NCBI RefSeq assembly: GCF_028532485.1
Contig: NZ_CP116942.1
Coordinates: 310,001 to 374,000 of the forward strand
Length of the DNA: 64,000 nucleotides
Reading direction: 5' to 3'
Source: Iamia majanohamensis
GTDB taxonomy: Bacteria; Actinomycetota; Acidimicrobiia; Acidimicrobiales; Iamiaceae
The position numbers and the translations under genes are program-made. Below, piece by piece: positions 40,118 to 43,382 of the stretch; within the stretch, counting starts at the first letter, position 1, and each line of letters opens with the position of its first letter. The notes under the pieces were generated by a model. It did not search any database, was not told the origin of the DNA, and worked only from the letters and a program-made list of their open reading frames with translations.

Positions 40118-41692
40118 GTGGCCCCTCCGGACGAGCCCCGCCGCCCCGAGTCCGAGGACCGTCCCGTCCTCGTCGTCGACTTCGGCGCGCAGTACGCCCA
40201 GCTCATCGCCCGGCGGGTGCGCGAGGCCCACGTCTTCAGCGAGATCGTGCCCGCCACCCTGAGCGCCGAGGAGCTGGCCGCCCGCCGGCCGGCGGGCATC
40301 ATCTTCAGCGGCGGGCCCGCCTCGGTCCACGTCGAGGGTGCCCCCGACATCGACCCCGGCGTCTACGACCTCGGCGTGCCCGTCCTCGGCATCTGCTACG
40401 GCGCCCAGCTCGTGGCCCTGCAGCTGGGCGGCACGGTGGCCCGCACCGGCCGGGCCGAGTACGGCCGCACCCCGCTCGACGTCAGCCACCCCGACGCGGT
40501 GGTCTTCGGCGGCGGCCAGCCCTCGCACCAGCAGGTGTGGATGAGCCACCGCGACTCCATCACCGAGGCCCCCGCGGGCTTCACCGTCACCGCCTCGAGC
40601 CCCGACGCCCCCGTGGCGGCCATGGAGGACGTGGGCCGGCGCCTCCACGCCGTGCAGTTCCACCCCGAGGTGGTGCACACGCCCCACGGCCAGCAGGTGC
40701 TCGAGCGGTTCCTCTACGACGTCTGCGGGTGCGAGCCGGACTGGACGATGACGAGCGTCATCGAGAGCGGCGTCGAGGCGGTGCAGGCCCAGGTGGGCGA
40801 CGCCCGGGTGATCTGCGCCCTCTCCGGCGGGGTCGACTCGGCCGTCGCCGCCGCCCTGGTCCACCGGGCCGTCGGCCCCCAGCTCACCTGCGTGTTCGTC
40901 GACCACGGGCTCATGCGCGAGAACGAGGGCGAGCAGGTCGTGGAGACCTTCCGCCGCCACCAGGGCATCGAGCTCATCCACGTCCAGGCCCAGGACCGCT
41001 TCTTCGCCCGGCTGGAGGGCCTCACCGACCCCGAGGAGAAGCGCAAGGCCATCGGCGAGGAGTTCATCCGCGTCTTCGAGGAGAACACCGGCGGCATCAC
41101 CGACGCCCGCTTCCTCGTCCAGGGCACCCTCTACCCCGACGTCATCGAGTCCGGCGGCAGCGAGGGCTCGTCCACCATCAAGAGCCACCACAACGTGGGC
41201 GGGCTGCCCGAGGACATGGAGCTCGAGCTGGTCGAGCCCCTCCGCACCCTGTTCAAGGACGAGGTGCGGGCCCTCGGCACCGAGCTCGGGCTCCCCGACG
41301 AGATCGTCTGGCGCCAGCCCTTCCCCGGCCCCGGCCTCGGCGTGCGGGTCATCGGCGAGGTCACCCCCGAGCGGGTGGCCCTGCTCCAGCGGGCCGACAC
41401 CATCGTCCGCGACGAGATCAAGGCGGCCGGCCTGGAGCGGGAGATCTGGCAGGCCTTCGCCGTGCTCCCCGACATCCGCAGCGTCGGTGTGCAGGGCGAC
41501 GAGCGCACCTACGGCCACCCCATCATCATCCGGGCCGTCACCAGCGAGGACGCCATGACCGCGGACTGGGCCCGGCTGCCCCACGACCTGCTGGAGCGGA
41601 TGTCGAGCCGCATCATCAACGAGGTCGACGGCGTCAACCGCGTCGCCTACGACGTGACCTCGAAACCGCCCGGGACGATCGAGTGGGAGTGA
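40118..41692 (+). CDS. guaA: GMP synthase (glutamine-hydrolysing)
   Basis: 524 residues from GTG 40118. The glutaminase half has the nucleophile C93 (LGICYGAQ) and H182/E184 ([10 protein letters not shown]). The ATP-pyrophosphatase half has the P-loop [14 protein letters not shown]. The C-terminal dimerisation domain ends with the strongly conserved [12 protein letters not shown]. It converts XMP to GMP. The last codons are also an insertion site: two further copies of PPGTIEWE-stop with synonymous changes lie downstream around the IS110 element. The gene itself is intact. Confidence 0.96.
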
Positions 41693-41694
41693 CG
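41678..41694 (+). other. guaA 3'-end insertion site, copy A
   Basis: The 17 bases ATCGAGTGGGAGTGACG span the last guaA codons and stop. The same 17 bases recur at 41816-41832 and 43366-43382. In copies B and C the preceding codons read GGC ACC instead of GGG ACG, so they still encode Pro-Gly-Thr before Ile-Glu-Trp-Glu-stop. Confidence 0.8.
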
Positions 41695-41756
41695 GCCTCG
41701 GTGGTCTGAGGGGGGCGGAGCGGAGGTCACGTCGACGACACCGTGCTTCCCGCTCC

Positions 41757-41832
41757 TGCCGCCTCCTCCGTCGGCGGCGGGCCGCTCGGGCCCTGGCTCC
41801 ACGCCCCCGGGCACCATCGAGTGGGAGTGACG
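41757..41832 (+). repeat. Left flanking repeat (copy B) of the IS110 locus
   Basis: 76 bases nearly identical to 43307-43382 (about 72 matches). The first part is a GC-rich block starting TGCCGCCTCCTCCGTCGGCG; the last part is the recoded guaA end. The block before the guaA-like end looks like the right end of an IS110 element, so this copy may be what is left of an earlier insertion. The 85 bases between guaA and this repeat contain no gene. Confidence 0.7.
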
Positions 41833-42139
41833 AGGGCTCCGAGCGCCCGGGTCACGGCTGGGGGGCGAGTGGCGCCCACGGTTCGGTGCTCGCTCTGGCT
41901 CCGCTCGCTGGCAGTGATGCTGGTGGGTGGGAGCTCCGGGCTCGGGTCTGCCTCTGTCGCTGGCTGGCTTCGTGTCCTTTGAGCGATCTGGCGTCTTGGT
42001 GCCCGGAGCTCCCGTTGCACTCACCGGTCGAGCGTCCGTGACCTCATAGGAGCCTGCGCTACCAGGCGCCCATCACTGTCTTGTCCGCTGTCTCGGCGGG
42101 TGCGTGCCACCACCCCCTGACAGTTGGAAAGAGAAGGTG
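41833..42139 (+). ncRNA. Candidate bridge-RNA region in the IS110 left end
   Basis: No coding frame is convincing here. GGGAGCTCCGGGC (41929-41941) is perfectly complementary to 42001-42013 and encloses 59 bases, so a folded RNA of about 85 bases or more is likely. IS110 elements of this layout are known to express a bridge RNA from this end that pairs with target and donor DNA. That this copy does so is inference; strand and ends of the RNA are not known. Confidence 0.4.
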
Positions 42140-43201
42140 ATGACGATGACCACCATCGCAGACGCGACGGTGTTGGTGACCGTTGGTGTGGACACCCATG
42201 CCGATGCTCATGTGGCTGCGGTGCTCGACGAGCGGGGTGTCTTGGTCGGGACCCGGTCGTTTCCCTCGACACGGGCCGGGCATGGCCAGCTGGTGATCTG
42301 GGCTGCGGGCTTCGGTCGACCCGAGGCGTTCGGTGTGGAGGGGACCGGGGCGTGGGGTGCGGGTCTGGCCCGTCACCTCGGCGCCCTGGGCTACGTGGTG
42401 GTCGAGGTCGATCGCCCGGATCGCACCGATCGGTACCACCGGGGCAAGACCGACGTCTTCGACGCAGAAGCGGCGGCCCGGGCGGTGCAGTCAGGGCGGG
42501 CGACCACCGTCCCCAAAGCGCGCAACGGGCTGGTGGAGGCCATCCGGGTCCTGCGGGTGGCACGGGGCTCAGCGGTCGGGGACCGGGCCGGGGCGATCAA
42601 CCGGCTCAAGAGCCTTGTGTCCACCGCACCAGATGACCTGCGGGACCGGTTGCGCAACCTCGACAACCAGACCCTGGTCAGGATCTGCGCCGGGTTCCGC
42701 CCCTGCGGGGTCACCGATCCCCTCAATGCCACCAAGCACGCCCTGCGGTCCCTGGCCCGCCGCATCACCCAGCTCACAGACGAGATCGATGACCTCGATG
42801 CCCAGCTCGAGCCGCTCGTGACCGCCGCCGCACCACCCGCTCTGCTGGAACGGGTCGGGGTCGGCATCGACGTCGCTGGCCAGCTGCTGGTCACCGCCGG
42901 CGACAACCCCGACCGGCTCCACAGCCCAGGAGCCTTCGCCATGCTCTGCGGCGTCGCCCCCATCCCCGTCGCCTCGGGCAAGACCAGCACCCACCGTCTC
43001 AACCGCGGCGGTGACCGCGCCGCCAACGCAGCGATCTACCGCATCGCGTTGTGTCGCATGCGCTGGGATCCCGACACCCAGGCCTACATCGCCAAGAAGA
43101 TCGCCGAGGGCAAGACCAAGCGGGGCGCCATCAGATGCCTCAAGCACCACATCTCCCGAGAGATCTACAAAGACCTCCGACCCCCCACTTGCCATCCATA
43201 G
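42140..43201 (+). CDS. IS110-family transposase (DEDD recombinase)
   Basis: 353 residues from ATG 42140, with GAGAAGG just upstream. The RuvC-like DEDD domain has VGVDTHADAHVAAVLD, AFGVEGTGAWGAGLA and GKTDVFDAEAAARA. The C-terminal Tnp20 domain has ERVGVGIDVAGQLLVTAGDN and GVAPIPVASGKTSTHRLNRG, where a Ser near SGKTS is the likely nucleophile. The frame is intact. It should cut and paste through a circular intermediate, guided by RNA. Confidence 0.93.
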   Translation: MTMTTIADATVLVTVGVDTHADAHVAAVLDERGVLVGTRSFPSTRAGHGQLVIWAAGFGRPEAFGVEGTGAWGAGLARHLGALGYVVVEVDRPDRTDRYHRGKTDVFDAEAAARAVQSGRATTVPKARNGLVEAIRVLRVARGSAVGDRAGAINRLKSLVSTAPDDLRDRLRNLDNQTLVRICAGFRPCGVTDPLNATKHALRSLARRITQLTDEIDDLDAQLEPLVTAAAPPALLERVGVGIDVAGQLLVTAGDNPDRLHSPGAFAMLCGVAPIPVASGKTSTHRLNRGGDRAANAAIYRIALCRMRWDPDTQAYIAKKIAEGKTKRGAIRCLKHHISREIYKDLRPPTCHP

Positions 43202-43306
43202 GAGCATCGCTCGCTCCGCTGCTGCGCTCCGCTTCCGTGGGCGCCACCCGCCCGTCGCGTTGATCAGGCCGCCCACCTCGCTGGGGGTAGGGCGGCTGCG
43301 CCGCCG

Positions 43307-43382
43307 TGCCGCCTCCTCCGTCGGCGGCGGGCCGCTCGGGCCGTGGCTCCGAGCCCCCCGGCACCATCGAGTGGGAGTGACG
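43307..43382 (+). repeat. Right flanking repeat (copy C) of the IS110 locus
   Basis: Partner of 41757-41832. After its guaA-like end the sequence goes on CGGCCTCGGCGGTCTGA, matching what follows the real guaA stop (CGGCCTCGGTGGTCTGA), whereas copy B diverges at that point. So copy C borders the original chromosome on the right. Confidence 0.75.

What the first reader, a model, noticed from the sequence alone, without database searches (positions are those of the whole stretch)
41833..42139. Candidate bridge RNA in the IS110 left end
A 307-base non-coding end upstream of the transposase contains a perfect 13-bp inverted repeat spaced by 59 bases. Position and size fit the bridge RNA of IS110-group elements. 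If loops pair with the guaA end, this would be a natural guide for an essential-gene site.
Basis: partly seen in the sequence, partly recalled or inferred. Interest (0 to 1): 0.6.

Follow-up and report, generated by a model that had tools for sequence, protein, structure and literature searches.

The report
IS110 bridge RNA aimed at repeats
The stretch encodes the guide ("bridge") RNA of an ordinary IS110 jumping gene, which pairs with the element's own ends and with a palindromic repeat scattered through this bacterium's genome; it does not pair with the essential gene guaA as first guessed.

Summary
The 13-bp inverted repeat is real, and it is the stem of the target-binding loop of an IS110-group bridge RNA. 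Three identical copies in this genome and the empty sites put the element at 41913-43208 (1,296 bp); 41833-41912 is host DNA. The bridge RNA (about 41928-42108) has four guides: LTG 41956-41964, RTG 41980-41986, LDG 42047-42055, RDG 42071-42080. LTG and RTG match the hairpin repeat into which the IS inserted (at least 15 intact copies remain). LDG and RDG match the element's own ends.

Across 30 distinct left ends, guides read from fixed alignment columns match their own target or donor far better than swapped ones (z about 9-11; 0 of 20,000 permutations). Both loop stems covary. Joining right and left ends rebuilds a promoter, as in IS621. The guaA end is not the target: its best match is 7 nt, in the stem, not above chance.

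Verdict: a new member of a known kind. The one unusual feature is the core: donor TC and target RC share one base, and the loops' core letters match the partner DNA. Expression and transposition were not tested.

The parts
41913..43208 (+). IS110-group insertion sequence, 1,296 bp (one C at either border, 41912 or 43208, is ambiguous)
   Evidence: three identical copies in the genome, flank comparison and empty sites
41863..41912 (+). left half of the interrupted palindromic repeat: arm GGGCGAGTGGCGCCCACGG and left target ...GCTCGCTG-GC
   Evidence: 19-nt arms 95% complementary with 43235-43253 (I6); empty copies at G000:C1 47165, 1411725, 2108179, 2108626, 2914288
43209..43253 (+). right half of the interrupted palindromic repeat: right target GCTCGCTCCG... 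and arm CCGTGGGCGCCACCCGCCC
41928..42108 (+). predicted bridge RNA, about 180 nt (start inferred from the promoter, end from the DBL stem)
   Evidence: I18; stem covariation across 30 elements, own-arm duplex -43.4 against -29.3 kcal/mol for swapped arms, z -16
41956..41964 (+). left target guide GTCGCTGGC: 8/9 match to this copy's target, 9/9 to the copy at 727470, 7/9 to the copy at 766135
41980..41986 (+). right target guide TGAGCGA (pairs TCGCTCA), followed by T41987, the predicted handshake base
42017..42108 (+). donor-binding loop (DBL)
   Evidence: fold and stem covariation z -6.7
42047..42055 (+). left donor guide TAGGAGCCT, matches right-end TAGGAGCAT (one fixed mismatch at donor position 7)
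42071..42080 (+). right donor guide CATCACTGTC, reverse complement of the left-end CAGTGATG plus handshake base
42140..43201 (+). IS110 transposase/recombinase, 353 aa; DEDD residues D18, E67, D105, D108 and serine S279 align with IS621
43197..43208 (+). right end CATAGGAGCATC (left donor + core TC); overlaps the transposase stop codon
43189..43194 (+). -35-like TTGCCA, completes a promoter with the -10-like GATGCT at 41916-41921 only in the excised circle (17-nt spacing)

Best explanation
The left end of this IS110-group element encodes a bispecific bridge RNA. When the element excises as a circle, its right and left ends join and form a promoter that transcribes the RNA. The second loop (DBL) pairs through LDG and RDG with the circle junction. 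The DEDD/serine recombinase then exchanges strands next to a shared C and inserts the element. Shown here: element borders, guide complementarity and covariation, stems, promoter motif. Inferred from IS621: transcription, RNP assembly, chemistry of strand exchange.
For: Three identical copies in three different flanks all match the same LTG/RTG. Fifteen empty sites match TCGCTRGCGCTCNCTYCG, 0 for the reversed control. In 30 distinct left ends, guides taken from fixed alignment columns were compared with their own and with swapped partners (matches, own against permuted): LTG 5.23 vs 2.60 of 7; RTG 3.77 vs 1.61 of 5; LDG 6.93 vs 6.39 of 7; RDG 5.17 vs 3.37 of 6. None of 20,000 permutations reached the observed values, and all four remain far above permutation when transposases are thinned to <60% identity (at most 2 of 20,000 reach). 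Donor guides co-vary with the ends, e.g. TAGGGGC, TAGGAAC, TAGGAGT and AAGAGGCGC pairs. RNAalifold independently picks the left-end/RDG pairing, with up to 12 sequences changed on both sides at one pair. TBL stem z -16, DBL stem z -6.7. Junction promoter 9.2/12 against 6.16 +- 0.16 shuffled. Handshake bases pair in 25/30 (TBL) and 28/30 (DBL) elements.
Against: No expression or transposition data. The RDG statistic is inflated because left ends were located partly by their RDG match; LDG was also required to be near-matching. LTG and RTG were not used to place the ends. About half of the fetched relatives were left out because their ends could not be placed automatically. Permutations ignore relatedness (partly met by thinning; LDG loses power, 308 of 20,000 at <55% identity). 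Rfam has no family that matches. The window copy's target matches LTG at 8 of 9 positions and RTG at 4 of 5 non-core positions, not perfectly.
Confidence: 0.95

Rival explanations
1. The bridge RNA targets the 3' end of guaA; the IS is a guide-directed insertion at an essential-gene site.
For: The IS lies close to guaA, and copies of the guaA 3' end flank it (41678, 41816, 43366).
Against: The guaA-end motif is not at the junctions; the longest match to the bridge RNA is 7 nt in a stem, within shuffled range. The other two copies of the IS sit in repeats without this motif. LTG/RTG match the repeats.
Confidence: 0.02
2. The inverted repeat is only a regulatory hairpin in the transposase 5' UTR (attenuator or translation control), without guide function.
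For: It lies upstream of the start codon and is very stable.
Against: Loop sequences between the arms vary in step with each element's insertion site across 30 elements; regulation alone does not predict this.
Confidence: 0.03
3. The guide-target matches reflect common descent or compositional bias of high-GC repeats rather than recognition.
For: Related elements share both guides and targets, and GC-rich sequence gives frequent short matches.
Against: The signal persists among transposases <60% identical (LTG z 7.5, RTG z 7.3, n 15). The four guides follow four different DNA segments on the strands predicted by IS621.
Confidence: 0.02

Closest known systems
IS621 and its bridge RNA (IS110 group, E. 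coli; Durrant et al. 2024 PMC11208160, Hiraizumi et al. 2024 PMC11208158)
   Same: Recombinase with DEDD residues and the catalytic serine (PDB 8wt6, E 1.7e-6); bridge RNA in the left end; order stem-LTG-stem loop-RTG, then DBL with LDG and RDG; 9-nt LTG (7 + core); promoter built at the circle junction; targets are palindromic repeats (REP); handshake bases.
   Different: Core is donor TC / target RC instead of CT in both. RDG is contiguous rather than split. Most of this clade seems to lack the 5' stem-loop before the TBL (about 4 of 30 have an extra hairpin). Distant in sequence.
ISEc21 seekRNA (IS110 family, Siddiquee et al. 2024 PMC11187229)
   Same: Upstream non-coding region needed for circle formation and targeting; bottom-strand match lies 5' of the top-strand match; junction promoter; insertion without duplication of target bases.
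   Different: ISEc21 targets a coding sequence in IS3-family transposases, not a palindromic repeat.
IS1111 group (bridge/seekRNA in the right end)
   Same: DEDD recombinase and guide RNA principle.
   Different: Here the RNA lies in the left end; the right end has only 7 bp beyond the stop codon.

Membership tests
IS110 family, IS110 group | recombinase with N-terminal DEDD (PF01548) and C-terminal Transposase_20 (PF02371) with the conserved serine | tested here: met
   both domains; D18, E67, D105, D108, S279 align with IS621
IS110 family, IS110 group | long non-coding left end that carries the bridge RNA, short right end | tested here: met
   left end 227 bp, right end 7 bp beyond the stop codon
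bridge RNA | two stem-loops with internal guide segments conserved in structure | tested here: met
bridge RNA | LTG/RTG complementary to the bottom/top strand of the insertion site | tested here: met
bridge RNA | LDG/RDG complementary to the element's own RE-LE junction | tested here: met
   (RDG partly circular, see the Against line)
bridge RNA | promoter reconstituted at the circle junction | tested here: met
   motif only; activity not testable here
IS621 and near orthologues | CT core dinucleotide in both donor and target | tested here: not met
   donor TC 30/30; target AC 23, GC 6, TC 1 (the TC case, L069, has a hand-placed, doubtful border)
bridge RNA | RNA expressed, bound by the recombinase, directs recombination | not testable with these tools
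   needs RNA-seq and assays
IS1111 group | bridge RNA in the right end and 7-17-bp sub-terminal inverted repeats | tested here: not met
   RNA lies in the left end; by eye only GATGCT/AGCATC (6 bp) near the ends, not conserved in relatives

The most novel reading that the evidence does not exclude
This clade of IS110 elements may use a one-base effective core with a handshake built into it. Donor core is always TC and target core RC. The RTG always carries GA, which mismatches the target's first core base but pairs with the donor's T after strand exchange; the RDG always carries GU, which mismatches the donor's T but pairs (A-U or G-U) with the target's R after exchange. The RNA would thus favour the exchanged state at the core itself, unlike IS621, where both cores are CT.
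Probability: 0.35. Interest if true: 0.5.

Novelty: new member of a known kind. Interest (0 to 1): 0.33.

Why it matters
It confirms, from raw sequence, a natural IS110 bridge RNA with all four guides placed, in a high-GC lineage where left-end guides, targets and donors vary together across dozens of elements. The set is useful for learning guide rules, and the departure from the CT core bears on which cores such recombinases accept. It also shows a mobile element that uses RNA to aim at palindromic repeats rather than at genes.

Tried and rejected
Left border at 41833: rejected from repeat copies and empty sites. guaA end as target: rejected. Core CT by analogy with IS621: would require right junctions of the form CT-GG..., which none of the copies shows. 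Rfam scan: no bridge-RNA family matches. The search for related loci with the single protein in genome contigs: 73 candidates, none confirmed. A 14-mer of the LDG region in genome contigs gave scattered hits in many phyla; not examined one by one, judged chance. Plasmid search: only transposase-level matches at 64-69% identity in Streptomyces and others. RNAalifold on the MAFFT alignment misses most of the distal TBL and DBL stems because arm lengths vary, so stems were tested by swapping arms instead. No covariance model was built, because the alignment and arm-swap tests already answered the question.

Full report
What is there. The surrounding 91 nt fold far better than shuffled sequence (z -5.2). 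The ORF downstream, 42140-43201, is an IS110 transposase by Pfam and by the NCBI model of RNA-guided IS110 transposases. Its DEDD residues and serine align with the IS621 recombinase of PDB 8wt6.

Borders. The genome is one contig of 4.58 Mb, and two further copies are identical to the window only over about 41902-43218. Their flanks differ outside it. The left junctions read GCTCGCTGGC|AGTGATG (window), GGTCGCTGGC|AGTGATG (727470) and GTTCGCTAGC|AGTGATG (766135). The right junctions read GAGCATC|GCTCGCTCCG, GAGCATC|GCTCCCTCCG and GAGCATC|GCTCACTCCG. Empty sites read TCGCTGGCGCTCnCTCCG.

Target. The degenerate pattern of the empty site occurs 15 times in the genome and its reversed control 0 times. 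The sites belong to two kinds of hairpin repeat with the same centre. The pattern also occurs in 7 of 24 genomes of the family. The window copy interrupts one kind, the other two copies the second kind. I call these REP-like from their form; whether all are extragenic was not tested.

Guides. From 298 genomes of the order, 49 had relatives, and the loci were fetched. Right ends read TAGGAGCATC at or just past the stop codon; left ends start with (A/T/G)GTGATG or variants. Thirty distinct left ends were aligned. Guides were then read from fixed columns, without looking at targets, and compared with each element's own target and donor and with those of other elements. All four guides fit their own partner; 0 of 20,000 permutations reached the observed sums. 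Thinning to transposases less than 60% identical left LTG z 7.5, RTG z 7.3 and RDG z 6.4. The RDG and LDG tests are partly circular, because the ends were placed with their help; LTG and RTG are not. Donor guides change together with the ends, e.g. TAGGGGC, TAGGAAC, TAGGAGT and AAGAGGCGC, and the left-end/RDG pairing was found independently by RNAalifold.

Structure and expression. TBL stem arms vary widely but pair with their own partner (-43.4 against -29.3 kcal/mol, z -16); the DBL stem likewise (z -6.7). Joining right end to left end produces TTGACA-17-NATNNT in most elements (TTGCCA-17-GATGCT in the window copy); mean score 9.2 of 12 against 6.16 +- 0.16 after shuffling. This is the arrangement described for IS621 (PMC11208160).

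How it works, most likely. By analogy with IS621 (PMC11208158): the circle makes the RNA; the recombinase loads it; the TBL holds the repeat and the DBL the junction; top strands are cut after the core and exchanged. Handshake bases predicted from IS621 pair in 25 of 30 (TBL to donor position 7) and 28 of 30 (DBL to target position 7) elements, more than permuted (38 and 1 of 20,000 reach these counts). The core differs from IS621: donor TC in all, target RC in 29 of 30, RTG GA in all, RDG GU in all. So each loop's core letters fit the partner DNA after exchange. That is an inference from conserved letters and depends on the core register.

guaA. It is not at the junctions, and the bridge RNA has no guide for it. 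The repetition looks separate from the IS: a member of another genus of the family has two tandem copies with a similar 130-bp spacer.

Verdict. An ordinary, well-preserved IS110-group element with a complete predicted bridge RNA: a new member of a known kind, with a core variant worth a closer look.

Noticed in passing
window 41670-43382: The guaA 3' end (ATCGAGTGGGAGTGA) is present three times in tandem, with a 76-bp flanking repeat (41757-41832 / 43307-43382, 95%). G002, another genus of the family, has two guaA ends separated by a similar 130-bp spacer with GGCGGAGCGGA...TCCCGCTC; possibly a small non-autonomous element or attachment scar at guaA.
   Followed up: partly
L054-L068 (G000:C1, 15 places): Two kinds of hairpin repeat share the centre TCGCTGGCGCTC; one kind often follows shortly after an apparent stop codon. 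G299 of the same family has 30 copies.
   Followed up: partly
L077-L080 (G185, four loci): Four identical copies of a 50% related IS110 sit in repeat-like flanks with target CCCAGCGGC/TGCGCCGGG that match its own LTG (9/9 in three copies) and RTG; the pair L047/L075 sits in near-identical flanks that look coding.
   Followed up: partly
G000:C1 2356193-2357206 and 3343861-3346227 (L012, L013, L014): Diverged IS110 relatives in the same genome; the second appears split by about 1.3 kb.
   Followed up: no
L034, L036, L050, L088 left ends: These relatives have about 30-40 extra nt before the TBL that may be the 5' stem-loop known from IS621 and missing in most of this clade.
   Followed up: no
window 42140-43198: The transposase has a weak NCBIfam match to TIGR-Tas (19.7 bits, cutoff 100), in line with IS110 being discussed in the TIGR-Tas paper PMC12045711.
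   Followed up: no
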